From an uncultured Bacteroidota bacterium (GTDB lineage Bacteria > Bacteroidota > Bacteroidia > Chitinophagales > Chitinophagaceae), in assembly GCA_903887005.1 (NCBI GenBank), contig CAISOH010000019.1, positions 1 through 37,951 of the forward strand: a stretch of 37,951 nt of DNA, read 5' to 3'. Under the pieces are notes generated by a model, which saw only the letters and a list, made by a program, of their open reading frames with translations, had not been told where the DNA came from and did no database searches. Position numbers and translations under genes: made by a program. Positions within the stretch are counted from its first letter, which is position 1. Every line of letters begins with the position of its first letter. Shown in pieces: positions 13,456-37,454 of this stretch.

Positions 13456-13540
13456 TAATACAAAGATAGGGAGTTATAAAAAAACAATGTCATAAAATTA
13501 TCATGCCTTAAATTATTTATACGATTTTTAATTAAGGTTA

Positions 13541-13689
13541 TACTTCTCACGGGGTAAAACAGTGCAATAAATATCTCTCGCAAAGGCGCAAAGACGCAAA
13601 GTATAATTACTTGATTGTTAATTCATTATATAAATGTCAAGACCGCAAAGCCCTCAATTTAATTGCACTAATCTATCCCGATTACAGTA
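13541..13689 (+). repeat. MITE-like element A
   Basis: It starts TACTTCTCACGGGG and ends CCCGATTACAGTA, flanked by TA on both sides. The interior has CGCAAAGGCGCAAAGACGCAAAG-type tandem motifs. It is about 85-90% similar to the elements near 29638-29787 and 35809-35959 by eye. The termini form an imperfect inverted repeat TACT...CGGGG. Confidence 0.75.
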
Positions 13690-13712
13690 TAGCCCTATTC
13701 CTTTTCTATTTC

Positions 13713-13997: not shown

Positions 13998-14100
13998 TTG
14001 GAATATTTCGCCCCTTAAGGGCTCAGCAATGTTTGTTTTGTTCCGATGGGCGTTGCCTATCGCTATTCATATTTTGCCCCTTCAGGGCCCTACAGGGCTT
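13998..14100 (+). repeat. REP-type double hairpin
   Basis: GATGGGCGTTGCCTATC, the spacer GCTATTCATATTTT and a GCCCC...GGGC hairpin share the architecture of the tandem array at 17255-17580 and the copies at 37685-37810. Confidence 0.6.
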
Positions 14101-14202
14101 GTGTTATTGAGATTGGACTGCAATCCCGATTAGTATTTTATGATAAATTAAATACATTATTAAAAGGTATAGTTTGCATTTTGCGTACAAAGGTAAGATG
14201 GA

Positions 14203-14322
14203 AAACAATACAAAAAATGACAAAATACCCACATTTTTGAAGGGTAAATATGGATGAAAGGCAATGTGGGAGCGGGTTTTGGAGTTACAAAACTGTGTGG
14301 GGAACTTTATTATTGTAATGTT
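14203..14322 (+). repeat. Palindromic repeat flanking the toxin-antitoxin pair, left copy
   Basis: It begins AACAATACAAAAAATGACAA and ends TTTATTATTGTAATGTT. These ends are imperfect inverted repeats of each other, and CCCACA...TGTGTGGGG lies just inside. The right copy is at 15022-15145 in the same orientation. The similarity extends about 17 bases further left, from 14186. Confidence 0.7.
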
Positions 14323-14337
14323 TTGGGGGTTAGCGAA

Positions 14338-14733
14338 TCAAATTGCTTCCCATAGATTAACAATATTCACTCCTTTAATATTCTTAAAGTCGCTAACATT
14401 ACGGGTAAGTAAAGTGTAGCCATTTACAACAGCGGTAGCTGCAATAATGGCATCCGGCAATTTAATTTTGTGAAGTTTACGAATGTCAGCAGTTTTTAGT
14501 TTTATAGACCTTTCCAACTCAATTACCAAGGCGTCATTGATAAAGTTATTAAGCACTTCCTGATCTTTTTGGGTGGGAGTTTTCCAACATAGTAATTCAA
14601 TTTCAGTTATTACGGAAATACAAGGTTGAAACTCTTTCAATAAATTATCCATCATCTTTTCAGCAGCCGGTGGAAATTGCCGCTGCAAATAATAAATAGC
14701 AGTATTAGTATCCCAAAGGTATTTTACTCCCAT
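14338..14733 (-). CDS. VapC-like PIN-domain toxin
   Basis: The 131-residue product is a PIN ribonuclease of the VapC type. All acidic active-site positions are present: Asp8 (YLWDTN), Glu44 (ITEIELL), Asp94 (KLPDAIIAATA) and Asp115 (TRNVSDF). It presumably cleaves RNA when free of its antitoxin. Its ATG (14731-14733) lies inside the 3' end of the upstream antitoxin gene, a 10-bp overlap typical of coupled toxin-antitoxin genes. The stop is only 15 bp from the left flanking repeat. Confidence 0.88.
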   Translation of the reverse strand: MGVKYLWDTNTAIYYLQRQFPPAAEKMMDNLLKEFQPCISVITEIELLCWKTPTQKDQEVLNNFINDALVIELERSIKLKTADIRKLHKIKLPDAIIAATAVVNGYTLLTRNVSDFKNIKGVNIVNLWEAI

Positions 14734-14968: not shown

Positions 14969-15021
14969 ATAATAATATTAACATGAATCCTTAGAACAAC
15001 ATATACAAATGTAAAATGGGA

Positions 15022-15145
15022 AACAATACAAAAAATGACAAAATACCCACAATTTTGGCGTCCGCGTCCGCTTTCGCTAAAGCTAGGGATGGTAAAAGGT
15101 TTTGGCGTCACAAAATTGTGTGGGAAACTTTATTATTGTAATGTT
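15022..15145 (+). repeat. Palindromic repeat flanking the toxin-antitoxin pair, right copy
   Basis: This is a directly oriented near-copy of 14203-14322. It differs mainly in the middle, where it has a GCGTCCGCGTCCGCTTTCGC segment. The CCCACAATTTTG and CAAAATTGTGTGGG arms are clearer here than in the left copy. Confidence 0.7.
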
Positions 15146-15230
15146 TATGGGTAATTGAAAGGTACGTTCATCTATGTTACCGCAAATGTTCCTGTGCATA
15201 AGTTTTATACATCACGGGCTTGTTATGTAT

Positions 15231-16986: not shown

Positions 16987-17011
16987 AACACAAGACTTTT
17001 TAATAATAACG

Positions 17012-17190
17012 TCAGTTCGATGATTATTTATATGACAATCAATTAGTTAACTATATTTAGCACAGGTGTTCCACACCGAAAAGGTGTGGGACACCCCTAA
17101 GACCTCAACAAAATATCATTATTAGCATCAAAATATAGAAAAGGCCTGGCTAATAACTGATATTTATCATCGAACCCGCGTTAAATTTAT
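17012..17190 (+). repeat. GTGTGG-hairpin repeat, copy 1
   Basis: The core is a 13-bp stem GGTGTTCCACACC/GGTGTGGGACACC with loop GAAAA (17065-17095). Preceding and following sequence is shared with 19139-19315. Partial copies lie at 35679-35806 (continuing past 35960) and inverted at 36100-36175. This copy contains the uninterrupted string GGCCTGGCTAATAACTGATA that serves as the empty site for MITE C. Confidence 0.75.
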
Positions 17191-17254
17191 TCCGAGTTCA
17201 AAGCCTTTTTTGTTTTGGCTTTTGACTTTTGAATTAAATCATATACACCACCAG

Positions 17255-17580
17255 TTCCGATGGGCGATGCCCATCGCTAACATATTCCGCCCTTTCAGGG
17301 CTTAACGGTGTTTTTTTTCATTTACAAGATGGGCGATGCCCATCGCTAACATATTCCGTCCTTTCAGGGCTTAACGGTGTTTTTTTTCATTTACCAGATG
17401 GGCGTTGCTCATCGCTAACATATTCCGCCCTTTCAGGGCTTAACGGTGTTTTTTTCATTTACAAGATGGGCGATGCCCATCGCTAACATATTCCGCCCTT
17501 TCAGGGCTTAACGGTGTTTTTTTCATTTACCAGATGGGCGTTGCCCATCGCTATCATATTCTGCCCTTTCAGGGCTTAAA
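17255..17580 (+). repeat. Five-unit tandem array of 68-69 bp double-hairpin units
   Basis: Units start at 17259, 17328, 17397, 17465 and 17533. Each contains GATGGGC..nGCCCATC and GCCCTTTCAGGGC hairpins joined by GCTAACATATTC, then ACGGTG and a T-run. The units alternate subtly, with CAAGAT/CCAGAT leaders and GGGCGATGCC/GGGCGTTGCC arms. There are no unique spacers. Confidence 0.85.
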
Positions 17581-17629
17581 ATAATGACATTGCCTTTTAA
17601 CTAATTAACCTTTTAACCCTTTACCCAAC

Positions 17630-18871: not shown

Positions 18872-19392
18872 AATAAACCCCAATCCGCCTCAGCGGAGCT
18901 TTAAAAGACTTTTACTAAATATTATTTTTCTGCCGTCAAGTTATTACTTTATTTTCATTTGTTCAATTGTCATTGGCGGGAATAAACCCATAATGCTGCA
19001 CATGAAATAAATCTGTCAGCAAAGAACTTTGTGCATGCTTTTGTTCAGATTGCAGCATGTCATGGTTCGGCGCGAGGTTCGGCGTAGCTCACCTTGACAA
19101 TCCATCCTGACAAATTATCTATTTTTATATTTTGACCTCAGTTCAGCGATTATTGATCTGGCAATTAATTAGTTAACTATATTTAGCACAGGTGTTCCAC
19201 ACCGAAAAGGTGTGGGACACCTCCAAGATCTCAACAAATACAATTATTGATAATAATATATAAATGCTTGGTTAATAAATTGATATTTATCATCGAATTT
19301 GCGTTATTTTAATTAAATTCACTGATTTATTCCAGCAAAAGAAGCCCAGGCACTTGTCCCGCTCTACGAGCGGGAAGGGTTTGGGGTGTGTT
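18872..19392. other. Gene-free spacer between serC and the DUF1015 gene
   Basis: It contains the second GTGTGG-hairpin repeat (19139-19315) and a CCCGCTCTACGAGCGGG hairpin at 19358-19374 downstream of serC. No residual serA coding sequence was recognised in it. Confidence 0.6.
19139..19315 (+). repeat. GTGTGG-hairpin repeat, copy 2
   Basis: It shares long stretches with 17012-17190, including CAATTAGTTAACTATATTTA-like sequence, the 13-bp hairpin stem and TTGATATTTATCATCGAA. It has the same orientation as copy 1. Confidence 0.75.
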
Positions 19393-28937: not shown

Positions 28938-29265
28938 CCAACATTCCTCGTATATACAAACACATAAACCATCCCTAATGTAATACCAATTGGGTATCAA
29001 ATTACGGCACGAAAGAATTTCTCGCAAAGCCGCAAAGGCGCTGTTACCAATTAATGTTTTTAAGTTCGCAAAGGCATATAGTAATACAGATTTTTGACGT
29101 TTAAATGGTATAATTACCTTTTTTTACATCAAAAAATTATGTTTTCCTGTTGTTTTTATTCAACTTCTCTTAGCAGGCAATATGAGGTAAAAGTATATCC
29201 GGAAGCCTTATTGAGCTAATACCTTATTTTCGTGTTTTAAATTGATATCTCCGGGGAAAAGTAAC
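28938..29265. other. Intergenic region with a non-coding repeat
   Basis: No credible gene was found. It contains repeat family 2, copy 1 (28983-29111). Confidence 0.6.
28983..29111 (+). repeat. About 130-bp repeat with ATACCA ends, copy 1
   Basis: It begins ATACCAATTGGGTATCAAAT and ends GACGTTTAAATGGTAT, inverted-repeat-like ends (ATACCA...TGGTAT). The interior holds CACGAAAGAATTTCTCGCAA and a CGCAAAGG/GCAAAGG block. About 85-90% similar to 31735-31867 by eye. Confidence 0.65.
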
Positions 29266-29601: not shown

Positions 29602-29992
29602 AGGGGGTAAATACGGTAAATAATAATTGTTATGAATACTTCTCAGGGGTAAAACAGTGCAATAAATATCTCTCGCAAAGGCGCAGAGACGCAAAGTATA
29701 ATTATTTGATTGTTAGTAAATTATATAAAAGGTCAAGACCGCAAAGCCCTCAATTAATATATGCACTAATCTATCCCGATTACAGTATAATTGCCCAATT
29801 ACTACTATTCAAAAAATAATATGCACAGCAACCTTATATGCTTTTACAGGCAAAGAAGGATTACTTACAAATCCTTCAATACCAATCAAAAATTGTCAGA
29901 TGGAATTCAATCGTTTAATAACCTTTTGTGCAGCTTAATAGCAGGTTCCCCGGAACAAGGTCCCGCCTTTTTCAGCGGGAGGGGTCAGGGGT
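29602..29992. other. Gene-free repeat region
   Basis: It contains MITE-like element B (29638-29787) and a hairpin-rich tail (AGGTCCCGCCTTTTTCAGCG, then GGGAGGGGTCAGGGG) before the T9SS gene. No coding sequence recognised. Confidence 0.6.
29638..29787 (+). repeat. MITE-like element B
   Basis: It starts TACTTCTCAGGGGTAAAAC and ends CGATTACAGTA, then TAA. The internal CGCAAAGGCGCAGAGACG run and the TTATTTGATTGTTAGTAAAT segment match elements A and C. The left flank reads AATACT rather than TATACT, so the TA duplication is not visible on that side. Confidence 0.75.
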
Positions 29993-31734: not shown

Positions 31735-31867
31735 ATACTAAATCCAATTGTATATCAAATTACGGCACGAAAGAGTTTCTCGCAAAGCGGCAAAGGCGCT
31801 GTTTCCAATTAACGTTTTCAAGTTCGCAAAGGTATAGTAGTACAGATTTTTGACGTTTAAATGGTAT
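31735..31867 (+). repeat. About 130-bp repeat with ATACCA-like ends, copy 2
   Basis: Shares CAAATTACGGCACGAAAGA, TTTCTCGCAAAGCGGCAAAG and TACAGATTTTTGACGTTTAA with 28983-29111. Its left end ATACTAAATCCAATTG is diverged from copy 1. Confidence 0.65.
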
Positions 31868-34106: not shown

Positions 34107-35648
34107 GTGCGCCTGCTTTCAAGTTTAATTGTGTTCTTATCAGGTATTTCATGTATTGGTTACTCACAAATGCTGCCCAAAGAAAATGCAGTTCTCAATT
34201 ACAGGTTAATTGGTTTTTCATTTCCGGGAAAGGAAGACATAATTGATTATAAAATTGAAATAGCGAGGGGATATTTTACCGGAGAAGATTCTTTTAAGAA
34301 AAATATTATTGTATCACAATCTGCAGCGAAAAATAAAATAATCGCGGAGGTTCCTGCTTTTGGCAGCCAATATACATGGCGGATTATTTACCCGGCCGGC
34401 ACTCCGGTTGAAACGCCCGCCGGCAGACTTTTTCACTTCAGCACTGCAATGATCCCGGCTGTGGATACAAATAATATGAGATTGCGGATCTGTAAACCTG
34501 CAGAAAAATATGGCGACGCCTTTGTGTTTTTAGATGGTAACGGAGTTTTGTATGACGTCAGCGGGCGCCCCATATGGTTCCTGCCGCAGATAGAAGGAAA
34601 GAAACCGGAACCGATTGATCTGAAACTTTCAGCAAAAGGGACCATTACTTTTATTTCCAAGCCCCATGCATACGAAATAAATTATAACGGGGATATCTTA
34701 TGGGAAAATCCGGTTACAGGGAATGTAACGGGGTTAAGCAAGGAACAGTTCCACCATCAGCTTACGCGGTTGGCTAACGGTCATTATATGGTACTTGGTA
34801 CTGAACATCTTAAAGTGCTGCGAAAGCAGCCACTCATGAGCGGTAAATATCCATTTTTTTCTATCAATGACAGTTCAAAAACAGGCCAGATAGACACGAC
34901 CTACTTCGAAGCGCCCTTTGGAACAATAGAAGAGTACGATGAAAAAGGCAATCTGGTCTGGTCCTGGAAATCTTCCTCTTACATTCTGTCGTCCGATATT
35001 TACGATTATTACCGCATGTTGCCGGGCCCCTTCCCCGATTATGATATACACGAGAACTCATTTTATTTTGATGAAAAGAATAAGGTTGTTTACCTGGGCT
35101 TCAGAACTATCAGCAGGATACTTAAAATTAAATATCCTGAGGGGGAAATACTGAGCACCTATGGTGAGATCTATAAGCCGGGGGGTTTGCCGAAAGGGAA
35201 TGAATTTTTTTACGGCCAGCACAGTTGCAATCATTCAGACAATGGCTATTTGTACGTGTTCAACAATAATATGCGCGACTCAAATTGTCTTCCTAAGATC
35301 ACGATCCTGAAGGAACGTTCACCGGGCAAGGAGCGCCTTAAAAAAATATGGGAGTATGATTTCCCTGCGAAGGACCTGGATGAGAAAATTAAGCCGGGAT
35401 TTTCATTTAATGCCGGGGGAAACGTAGCAGAACTGCCTGATAATTCCATGTTTGTGAGTATGGGTGTTCCGGATAGCAAACTGTTCATTGTCAGCAGGGA
35501 AAAGAAAGTATTGTGGAGCGCATTACCTGAAAAATGGGATGAGAAAAAAGGAAAATGGACATTAATGCCCCAATATCGCGCCAGCATTATTGCAAACCGC
35601 AAAGATCTGGAGCGTCTCATCTGGAACGAAGAAATAAAGAATGAATAG
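34107..35648 (+). CDS. Arylsulfotransferase (ASST)-like secreted protein
   Basis: The 513-residue product starts at a GTG (34107) with a signal peptide (RLLSSLIVFLSGISCIGYSQ). It has the repeated beta-propeller blades of the arylsulfotransferase family, with FHHQLTRLANGHYMVL (His216/217), YDIHENSFYFD (His315), the FR.ISRILKI block and FYGQHSCNH (His372). In active ASSTs such His residues form the sulfuryl-transfer site, and the sequence retains them, so it may move sulfate between phenolic or sugar acceptors without PAPS. The substrate is unknown. There is no T9SS tail. It is the only plus-strand gene among T9SS genes. Confidence 0.75.
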   Translation: MRLLSSLIVFLSGISCIGYSQMLPKENAVLNYRLIGFSFPGKEDIIDYKIEIARGYFTGEDSFKKNIIVSQSAAKNKIIAEVPAFGSQYTWRIIYPAGTPVETPAGRLFHFSTAMIPAVDTNNMRLRICKPAEKYGDAFVFLDGNGVLYDVSGRPIWFLPQIEGKKPEPIDLKLSAKGTITFISKPHAYEINYNGDILWENPVTGNVTGLSKEQFHHQLTRLANGHYMVLGTEHLKVLRKQPLMSGKYPFFSINDSSKTGQIDTTYFEAPFGTIEEYDEKGNLVWSWKSSSYILSSDIYDYYRMLPGPFPDYDIHENSFYFDEKNKVVYLGFRTISRILKIKYPEGEILSTYGEIYKPGGLPKGNEFFYGQHSCNHSDNGYLYVFNNNMRDSNCLPKITILKERSPGKERLKKIWEYDFPAKDLDEKIKPGFSFNAGGNVAELPDNSMFVSMGVPDSKLFIVSREKKVLWSALPEKWDEKKGKWTLMPQYRASIIANRKDLERLIWNEEIKNE

Positions 35649-35678
35649 AACGTAATAACTAAAAGTAACGAGATCCCG

Positions 35679-36000
35679 ACAATTATTAATATGGCAATCA
35701 ATCGTTACCCTATTTAGCATAGTTGTCCCACACCGAAAAGGTGTGGGACAACTCAAGACCTCAACAAATATCATTATTATACTTCAAAATATAGAAAAGG
35801 CCTGGCTATACTTCTCACGGGGTAAAACAGTACAATAAATATCTCTCGCAAAGGCGCAAATACGAAAAGTATAATTATTTGATTGTTAGTAAATTATATA
35901 AAAGTCAAGACCGCAAAGCCCTCAATTAAAATATGCTCTAATCTACCCCGATCACAGTATAATAACTGATATCCGGGGTTGAAATATCGGATCATATTCC
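35679..36000 (+). repeat. GTGTGG-hairpin repeat, copy 3, interrupted by MITE C
   Basis: GTTGTCCCACACCGAAAAGG and GGTGTGGGACAAC hairpin, then CTCAAGACCTCAACAAATAT and GGCCTGGCTA; the sequence resumes after the insertion at 35962 with ATAACTGATATCC, as in copy 1. Confidence 0.75.
35809..35959 (+). mobile_element. MITE-like element C (151 bp), nested, with TA duplication
   Basis: It starts TACTTCTCACGGGG and ends CCCCGATCACAGTA, flanked by TA at 35807-35808 and 35960-35961. Its flanks join to give GGCTAATAACTGATA, the uninterrupted sequence at 17148-17161, so TA is the target duplication. No ORF lies inside. TA duplication and size fit a non-autonomous IS630/Tc1-mariner-type element. Confidence 0.8.
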
Positions 36001-36050
36001 CACCGGTTTCACCGGTGGCTATTCAAATTAATGCCCTATCGGGCATTCTG
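35995..36050 (+). repeat. REP-type double hairpin
   Basis: CCACCGGTTTCACCGGTGG, CTATTCAAATTAAT, GCCCTATCGGGC: same architecture as 13998-14100 and 23185-23275 with a different first hairpin. Confidence 0.6.
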
Positions 36051-36099
36051 CATCATTTATAAGATGATTACCATGCACAATTTTATCAGGCGAGGAGAA

Positions 36100-36175
36100 T
36101 AATAATGATATTTGTTGAGGTCTTGGGGGGTGTCCCACACCTTTTCGGTGTGGAACAGCTATGCTAAATCTGGCT
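36100..36175 (-). repeat. GTGTGG-hairpin repeat, inverted partial copy
   Basis: Reverse complement of the hairpin and flank (GTCCCACACCTTTTCGGTGT), with TTTGTTGAGGTCTTG on the left. It lies opposite in orientation to copy 3. Confidence 0.65.
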
Positions 36176-36234
36176 GATACTCCCTGCTGTAAAGCATTTT
36201 CGTGACTTACACCCAATAGCATATCCCCTGCCAG

Positions 36235-36278
36235 GCAAAAAAAAGAAGGAACCATATAGCCCCTTCCCTTTTTTGTAA
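36235..36278 (-). terminator. Probable terminator of the Omp28-like gene
   Basis: On the minus strand AAAAAAGGGAAGGG, a loop, then TTCCTTCTTTTTTTTG. The stem is imperfect with a strong T-run. Confidence 0.5.
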
Positions 36279-36290
36279 AATATTCAGCTA

Positions 36291-37454
36291 CTACTTACTA
36301 ACTGTAAATGATTTAGTTACTTTTTCACCACCGTTATAGATATTCATAAAATATTCACCGTTTGCGAAATTATTCATTTCAATGACTTCACCGAAAAGAC
36401 TGCCGCCTGATGGATATTCTTTGGCTAAAACAACCTGTCCTATAGAATTGCAAATTTCAATCTTAGTATCAGAAGGTGCGCTTAATACGCCTTTTACAGT
36501 AATCCTGTTTTTTGCAGGATTAGGAAAAAGAGTAACTTCTGCCATTGCCTTAGAAACTTCATTTACTGACAGAGGAGCGTTCTTGGGCATGAGTCTTACT
36601 CTCGACTGGATTACATTTTCAATTGCATTACCGGCAGAACTATTTGCAGGGCCAGGTTTTTGAAACATACCTATTACCTTTACATAAGTGGGATTTGAAA
36701 TAGCAGGGATCGTGTAACTGTAAGTCTTGGTGAATGTGGCGCCAGCCGCAGGATTAGTAAATGCCAAATCACCAAATATATTGGCGCCAAGAGATGCTCT
36801 TACTACATTCATGTGCGAATATTTTGCAGCAGGTAAAACGCTTCCCAAACCGGTAAACCAGCAAGGCTGACCATTACATGCAGTTGTAGATGAATTTAAA
36901 TAACTATGTTGCTGGAAGGCTGCAGCTGCACTTGAAATACTATCTTCAGTTATGAGCGCATTGACATTCCAGGTGCCTGTTTGAGCAGATAAAGCTTTTC
37001 CTATAATAGTAATGGTAATTACTTTTGTAGCAGGATCGTAAAGACAATGCATTGTTACATCAAAATTAGGAGTGAGTGCATCACGGTTGCTCACGTAACT
37101 GTCCCAGGGACGGCTCTTCCCTACTGCACCTCCTAAAACTGGATAACGGTCAACTGATCCCATAGGGAATCCCGAAATATACCCCGTACCAGCACAATAT
37201 GGGTCTCCGGTTACAACCATGTCAGTACCATCATAAGATGAACCATGCCAGGAAGCGATAACAGCATGAGGATAATTCGTTGCAATAGTTTCTTCAATAT
37301 CCTGTGCTCCGTCAGGGCAATAACCACAGCCAGGTCCGGTTGCTTCTTCTACAAGTGTATATTTTTTTCCGTAGGTCGAGACATTGTATTGCCCGAAGGA
37401 ATTGCTAACCAGCAGCGTTGCTGTGGCGCATAAGAGAATAGATTTCAGTTTCAT
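36291..37454 (-). CDS. Omp28-like protein with CxxC and T9SS tail
   Basis: The 387-residue product has a signal peptide (LKSILLCATATLLVSNSFGQ), a thioredoxin-like module right after it (TLVEEATGPGCGYCPDGA, CxxC at residues 43-46), a GDPYCAGTGYISGFPMGSVDR block as in Omp28 proteins, and a T9SS type A tail (VTLFPNPAKNRITV, GEYFMNIYNGGEKVTKSFTV). It is probably an exported surface protein. It lacks the N-terminal adhesin domain of the larger Omp28-like gene at 31935-33935, but shares its thioredoxin module and tail type. Confidence 0.85.
   Translation of the reverse strand: MKLKSILLCATATLLVSNSFGQYNVSTYGKKYTLVEEATGPGCGYCPDGAQDIEETIATNYPHAVIASWHGSSYDGTDMVVTGDPYCAGTGYISGFPMGSVDRYPVLGGAVGKSRPWDSYVSNRDALTPNFDVTMHCLYDPATKVITITIIGKALSAQTGTWNVNALITEDSISSAAAAFQQHSYLNSSTTACNGQPCWFTGLGSVLPAAKYSHMNVVRASLGANIFGDLAFTNPAAGATFTKTYSYTIPAISNPTYVKVIGMFQKPGPANSSAGNAIENVIQSRVRLMPKNAPLSVNEVSKAMAEVTLFPNPAKNRITVKGVLSAPSDTKIEICNSIGQVVLAKEYPSGGSLFGEVIEMNNFANGEYFMNIYNGGEKVTKSFTVSK

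What the first reader, a model, noticed from the sequence alone, without database searches (positions are those of the whole stretch)
35807..35961. A 151-bp MITE-like element inserted into another repeat, with an empty-site control in the same window
The occupied site reads GGC-TA-[TACTTCTCAC...CACAGTA]-TA-ATAACTGAT. At 17148-17161 the same target repeat is uninterrupted: GGCTAATAACTGAT. The TA duplication and element ends are therefore visible directly. The element has no ORF and imperfect terminal inverted repeats (TACT...CGGGG), and is present three times here. This is the clearest sign of non-autonomous transposition in the window and points to an IS630/Tc1-like source.
Basis: seen in the sequence. 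Interest (0 to 1): 0.72.

Follow-up and report, generated by a model that had tools for sequence, protein, structure and literature searches.

The report
IS630-type miniature element with TA duplication
A 151-base piece of DNA without genes has copied itself to dozens of places in this uncultured Bacteroidota genome, most likely by borrowing the enzyme of a larger IS630-family transposon that carries the same kind of ends; this sort of parasite is already known from other bacteria.

Summary
Window 35809-35959 is a 151-bp element without a real gene, flanked by TA, inserted into another repeat whose uninterrupted copy lies at 17148-17161. A copy elsewhere in the genome sits in the same target repeat at a different TA; four uninterrupted copies of that site match. 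The genome holds at least 42 BLAST matches; the end pattern occurs 92 times, against 0 for the reversed control.

The IS630 interpretation is supported. Four contigs of this genome break inside a longer element with the same kind of end and the start of an IS630-like transposase. A congener has IS630 transposase fragments running into such an end. Three genomes of the same family carry full-length IS630 transposase frames bracketed by related ends.

So it is an IS630-derived MITE, like RUP of pneumococcus: a new member of a known kind. Less ordinary: the same ends bracket unrelated interiors, largely species-specific. Against: no complete autonomous IS was found in this genome or in MITE-rich G003 and G019, and the 151-mer does not fold unusually well.

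The parts
35807..35808 (.). TA, left copy of the target duplication
   Evidence: read directly; compared with the empty site
35809..35959 (+). 151-bp MITE core, TACT...AGTA
35960..35961 (.). TA, right copy of the target duplication
35807..35834 (+). left terminal inverted repeat, TATACTTCTCACGGGGTAAAACAGTACA (bipartite: TATACT, 5 nt, CGGGGTA, then GTGCA in most copies of the catalogue)
35934..35961 (-). right terminal inverted repeat, read from the edge inward TATACTGTGATCGGGGTAGATTAGAGCA
35847..35869 (+). interior heptad tract (CGCAAAGGCGCAAATACGAAAAG here; CGCAAAGGCGCAAAGACGCAAAG in other copies)
13539..13691 (+). second copy of the MITE in the window (90%)
29636..29789 (+). third copy of the MITE in the window (94%)
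35711..35973 (+). target repeat (CCACACC...GGTGTGG hairpin family), interrupted by the MITE
17003..17161 (+). uninterrupted target repeat: empty site for this copy at 17148-17161, and for the C359 copy at 17003-17060
19127..19290 (+). another uninterrupted, diverged target repeat; empty site for the C359 copy at 19127-19186 (the rest of the repeat read by eye)
36074..36101 (-). decayed end of a second MITE of the same end type with a REP-like interior, next to an inverted target repeat
   Evidence: found by the end scan; compared by eye with L091 and L093

Best explanation
The element is a miniature inverted-repeat transposable element (MITE) that moves when the transposase of an IS630-family insertion sequence with the same kind of ends acts on it in trans. 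It is joined into a TA dinucleotide, which is doubled. Shown: the ends, copy number, TA flanks, two empty sites, and IS630-family transposase genes with related ends in the same genome (truncated at contig breaks), in a congener (fragments) and in the same family (full-length frames). Inferred: that this transposase, and no other, did the moving; that the move is cut-and-paste; that the family was recently active (several contigs end inside copies).
For: Many copies: at least 42 matches; end pattern 92 against 0 reversed. TA on the left in 21 of 29 copies, on the right in 24 of 29, both in 17 of 29. Empty sites: window 17148-17161 for this copy; window 17003-17060, window 19127-19186, L009 and L027 for the copy at C359. 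Own genome: contigs C73, C156, C411 and C412 share a 123-bp left end TATACTGGTCGCTGGATAAAAATGTGCA... (99-100%) with an ORF start 81 bp inside whose 34 aa match IS630 transposases of the ISAcma14 kind at 45-50% (E 3e-4 to 5e-4); 25 aa of the frame match the congener's transposase at 60% (E 5e-5). Congener G026: two transposase fragments run into such an end plus TA (L110, L111; 3 and 4 pattern mismatches) and one left end starts the homologous protein (L117). L139, L140 and L141: full-length frames, NF033545 (IS630) at 171.6-185.4 bits against a cut-off of 100, inside 1155-, 1144- and 1227-bp stretches whose ends match the 28-base pattern with 2 and 4, 3 and 3, 5 and 6 mismatches. Identity of the window's left and right ends to IS ends: 20 and 17 of 28 (own IS left end), 22 and 20 (L117), null maximum 16 in 522. 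Several contigs end inside such copies (C49, C89, C99, C225, C300, C325).
Against: No complete IS630 was found in the window's genome (PF13358: 0 hits), nor in G003 and G019, which are also rich in these MITEs; in G027 the one DDE_3 gene has no matching end. Identity to the more distant IS ends (G278: 15 and 17 of 28; one G230 end 16 against the right end) is at or near the null maximum. 12 of 29 copies lack TA on one or both sides. The 151-mer does not fold better than shuffles (z -0.02 and 1.00), unlike classic hairpin MITEs. TA belongs to the search pattern, so the 94 of 113 is partly by construction.
Confidence: 0.9

Rival explanations
1. The element is a MITE, but of another TA-duplicating family (for example the IS427 group of IS5), and the resemblance to IS630 ends is superficial.
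For: No DDE_3 transposase was found in the window's genome. Some IS5-family elements also duplicate 2 bp (recalled, no call).
Against: Ends of this kind are found directly attached to IS630 transposase genes in this genome, in a congener and in three other genomes, with agreement above the null for the nearer ones. No IS5 search was made.
Confidence: 0.04
2. The repeat is a functional regulatory or structured-RNA repeat spread by recombination, not by transposition.
For: The midpoints of 22 of 23 copies examined (of 30 fetched) lie outside crude ORFs, two of them overlapping an ORF edge, as expected of regulatory repeats but also of tolerated insertions.
Against: TA-bounded insertion at two different sites of one target repeat, transposase genes with such ends, no Rfam match at E up to 1 in 35600-36300, no unusual folding.
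Confidence: 0.02
3. The GCAAAG heptad interior is the active part, for example a unit spread by a GxxExxY-type nuclease, and the TA ends are incidental.
For: The genome has 6 GxxExxY genes; L033 is flanked by heptad tracts in opposite orientation and L034 has heptads on both sides.
Against: The same ends bracket interiors counted as without heptads: 27 REP-like, 5 palindrome type C and 21 other, of 113 (some of the 'other' are decayed heptads). Of 30 heptad places examined (of 85), 14 have MITE ends on both sides, 11 on one, 5 on none. The six GxxExxY loci hold no MITE end at 4 mismatches or fewer.
Confidence: 0.03

Closest known systems
RUP (repeat unit of pneumococcus) with IS630-Spn1
   Same: about 100-150 bp, no ORF, ends like those of an IS630, TA target, many intergenic copies, repeats found inserted into one another (passages of PMC2229807, PMC3049150 and PMC10969869)
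   Different: here the host is an uncultured Bacteroidota and several unrelated interiors share the ends; RUP is 107 bp with 108 copies (PMC2229807 passage). The sequences were not compared
ISAcma14-like IS630 elements (Acaryochloris)
   Same: homologous transposase (L138 40% identical to L139); by eye the flanks of the gene also begin TATACT
   Different: these are elements with a transposase gene; the MITE lacks it
Correia elements (Neisseria)
   Same: small MITE with TA at the termini and an interior delimited by inverted repeats (passages of PMC2229807 Table 1 and PMC3049150)
   Different: different host; sequences not compared here

Membership tests
MITE (non-autonomous, IS-derived) | short, no transposase gene, many copies | tested here: met
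   151 bp; at least 42 matches; only 24-33 aa frames
MITE (non-autonomous, IS-derived) | terminal inverted repeats | tested here: met
   imperfect: 18/28 between the two ends of this copy, null maximum 16/28 in 522
MITE (non-autonomous, IS-derived) | target site duplication shown by an empty site | tested here: met
   two independent sites, each TA
MITE (non-autonomous, IS-derived) | strong single-strand hairpin (common, not required) | tested here: not met
   z-scores -0.02 and 1.00 for two copies
IS630/Tc1 derivative | TA target duplication | tested here: met
IS630/Tc1 derivative | ends shared with an IS encoding an IS630-family transposase | tested here: met
   own genome, transposase start only; G026 fragments; L139, L140, L141 full-length frames
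IS630/Tc1 derivative | DDE catalytic residues in the partner transposase | tested here: inconclusive
   in alignment A1, L139, L140 and L138 keep what I take, from recall, for D, D and E; L141 has V in place of the second D; the partner in the own genome is truncated
IS630/Tc1 derivative | movement by that transposase | not testable with these tools
   needs an assay

The most novel reading that the evidence does not exclude
IS630-type ends act as an exchangeable carrier: the same ends have repeatedly taken up pieces of other repeat families (GCAAAG heptads, REP-like palindromes, the CATGGTGAGCC palindrome), so that one transposase system spreads many otherwise unrelated intergenic repeats through a genus, each species amplifying its own cargo.
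Probability: 0.35. Interest if true: 0.5.

Novelty: new member of a known kind. Interest (0 to 1): 0.3.

Why it matters
It ties several unexplained repeat families of a Bacteroidota genus to one transposition system and explains some contig breaks in this assembly. Beyond that it is ordinary genome parasitism; the exchangeable interiors would matter if shown to be general.

Tried and rejected
PF13358 (IS630 DDE_3) in the own genome: 0 hits; I explain this by contigs that break shortly after the transposase start. GxxExxY (TIGR04256) as the mover, because of the shared heptads: 6 genes; none of the six loci holds a MITE end at 4 mismatches or fewer (the printed sequences were cut). Heptads in congeners G008, G010, G022 and G025, which show none of these ends (0 matches): of 7 loci looked at (one of them from G018) 5 show a heptad pair by a strict pattern (L067, L069, L070, L073, L076), lying by eye between genes, and I saw no GxxExxY gene among the frames printed, without a family search.

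Other IS630 genes of the genus: of 8 DDE_3 loci, 2 (L110, L111) carry a matching end at 4 pattern mismatches or fewer; the other 6 do not (best 5-8). Viral contigs: 0 exact matches to one end pattern. Rfam: none. In the family draw 15 of 394 genomes match the end pattern; G000 (114) and G019 (67) are rich, the other 13 have 1-4, and the reversed control matched once in the table (G135). G003, the other very rich congener, has no row in that table. In the genus search the control matched once (G028).

Papers: 0 papers hold 'miniature inverted-repeat', 'IS630' and 'Bacteroidetes' together; the 4 papers that hold a heptad string are unrelated by title and abstract; some searches gave search listings only (74: none). 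Passages were read of PMC10969869, PMC2229807 and PMC3049150. No paper was read whole.

Joined-flank matches dropped as evidence of empty sites, because they align only through other repeats or other MITEs, with gaps or mismatches at the junction, or to themselves: L007, L128, L194, L127, L123, L129, L197 (printed), L019 and L169 (only). The catalogue (126 pairs) was cut to 113 by dropping pairs under 110 bp and pairs that enclose a smaller one with a shared end. It covers only loci that I fetched, not all end matches.

Full report
What is there. The window is contig C19 of a 5.96-Mb, 453-contig genome. At 35807-35961 it reads TA, a 151-bp core TACT...AGTA, TA. The core carries no gene; the ORF list gives only four frames of 24-33 aa that cross its edges. 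The same element lies at 13539-13691 and 29636-29789. The site GGCTAATAACTGAT stands uninterrupted at 17148-17161 and at no other place on the + strand of the window. The left flanks of the two sites are 87% identical over 130 columns, up to the insertion point. On the right the match runs 11 bases, after which the occupied copy meets sequence of a second, decayed element of the same end type whose end is at 36074-36101.

A second empty site. Joining the flanks of the copy on contig C359 (L015) gives a sequence that aligns without a gap at the TA to four uninterrupted copies of the same target repeat: window 17003-17060, window 19127-19186, L009 75-132 and L027 1938-1994. This insertion is at a different TA of the repeat, so it is independent of the first. 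The duplication of TA is therefore supported twice.

Copies and ends. BLAST finds 42 matches in the genome, a lower bound since 40 of 142 first-look candidates were scored. The end pattern TATACT-N5-CGGGGTARANNAGTGCA with up to 3 mismatches is found 92 times, the reversed pattern 0 times. Counted without the pattern, on the 29 of 30 fetched BLAST copies with at least 70% identity, TA stands on the left in 21, on the right in 24 (one copy is cut off there) and on both sides in 17. In the catalogue of 126 pairs the end is bipartite: TATACT, a variable stretch, C.G.RTA, a variable stretch, GTGCA (the pattern was used to find these, so conservation is partly by construction). The two ends of this copy agree in 18 of 28 bases; the best of 522 TATA-starting 28-mers of the window agrees in 16 with either end. 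Folding is not better than that of shuffled sequence for two copies, so this is not a strong hairpin. By a crude ORF count the midpoints of 22 of 23 copies examined lie between frames, two overlapping a frame's edge.

The source of the transposase. PF13358 finds no IS630 transposase in this genome. But four contigs (C73, C156, C411, C412) share a left end TATACTGGTCGCTGGATAAAAATGTGCA with an ORF start 81 bp inside, and break within 123-184 bp of that end, as assemblies do inside a multi-copy element. The first 34 residues match IS630 transposases of the ISAcma14 kind on Acaryochloris plasmids at 45-50%. In congener G026 two transposase fragments run into such an end plus TA, and one left end starts the homologous protein. 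G026 is probably the MAG CAIUZK01 (uncultured Bacteroidetes bacterium, MJ-time_bin-5616): P0001 from its contig C201 matches CAIUZK010000201.1 at 100%, and both contigs have 58075 bases. P0001 matches NF033545 (IS630) with 64 bits over its partial length, below the cut-off of 100. In 394 genomes of the family P0001 has matches in 13. Relatives in G039, G230 and G278 have full-length frames that score 171.6-185.4 bits on NF033545 and sit in stretches of 1155, 1144 and 1227 bp whose ends match the 28-base pattern with 2 to 6 mismatches. The right end overlaps the last codons of the transposase in G026 and G039. In the alignment of L139, L140, L141 and ISAcma14 the residues that I take, from recall, for the DDE triad are kept, except that L141 has V for the second D.

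Different interiors. After filtering, the catalogue of 113 elements from fetched loci falls, by motif, into 60 with GCAAAG heptads, 27 with REP-like modules, 5 with the CATGGTGAGCC palindrome and 21 others. By genome: G000 42 of 51 heptad (4 palindrome, 2 REP-like, 3 other); G019 14 of 23 heptad (1 palindrome, 8 other); G003 25 of 31 REP-like, none counted as heptad; other congeners 4 of 8 heptad. Some 'others' are decayed heptad elements, and L094 is REP-like by eye. Of 30 heptad places examined, out of 85 in this genome, 14 have MITE ends on both sides, 11 on one and 5 on none. Heptads also occur in congeners that show none of these ends, so they are older than the element or independent of it. 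Capture of other repeats by the ends is the simplest reading; nested insertion of other repeats into the elements also seems to occur (L082, L085, L097; by eye) and could explain part of it.

Range. In the genus 8 of 35 genomes match a looser end pattern, five of them in numbers (G000 107, G003 85, G019 73, G027 30, G026 22) and three once each; the reversed control matched once. In the family draw of 394 genomes, which has no row for G003, only G000 and G019 are rich. One exact pattern is absent from viral contigs.

Known or new. The nearest known case is RUP of Streptococcus pneumoniae, thought to be moved by IS630-Spn1 for the same reasons, similar ends and TA targets (passages of PMC2229807 and PMC3049150). 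This is a new member of that kind; for Bacteroidetes the one search made with the three terms found no paper. What is shown is anatomy and association; movement by the IS630 enzyme is inferred.

Noticed in passing
window 36074-36101 (minus strand): Decayed end of a second MITE of the same end type with a REP-like interior, lying between two inverted copies of the target repeat.
   Followed up: partly
window 17243-17591: Tandem array of five units, 68-69 bp apart, built of palindromes GATGGGCGATGCCCATCGC and GCCCTTTCAGGGC; related units occur near 14003, 37679 and 37718 and inside REP-like MITEs of the same end type.
   Followed up: partly
window 17003-17190, 19123-19320, 35675-35973, 36096-36169: The target repeat is a family of its own with a CCACACC...GGTGTGG hairpin; two MITE copies (C19 and C359) landed in it at different TAs.
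   Followed up: partly
L031-L036 (six GxxExxY genes of the own genome): GxxExxY genes look bracketed by inverted repeats: heptad CGCAAAG tracts at L033 (and heptads on both sides at L034), TTGTCTGAAC-type repeats in L031, L032, L035 and L036 (by eye). May be a mobile unit of its own.
   Followed up: no
L082, L085, L097: Hairpin stretches such as AACATCTCCCCTCCT...AGGAGGGG...GGTTAAG appear nested inside MITEs of this family.
   Followed up: no
L120 1529-1731 and L185 (genome G003): Elements of this end type interrupt genes that look like toxin-antitoxin toxins (HigB-like and ParE-like, by eye and from recall).
   Followed up: no
window 28981-29078 and 31739-31836: 98-bp repeat (90%) with a CGCAAAG-rich tract and no MITE ends noticed.
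   Followed up: no
window 14186-14328 and 15004-15151: Two duplicated stretches (54 + 54 bp, 89-93%) about 820 bp apart, near a PIN-like ORF (name recalled) at 14338-14733.
   Followed up: no
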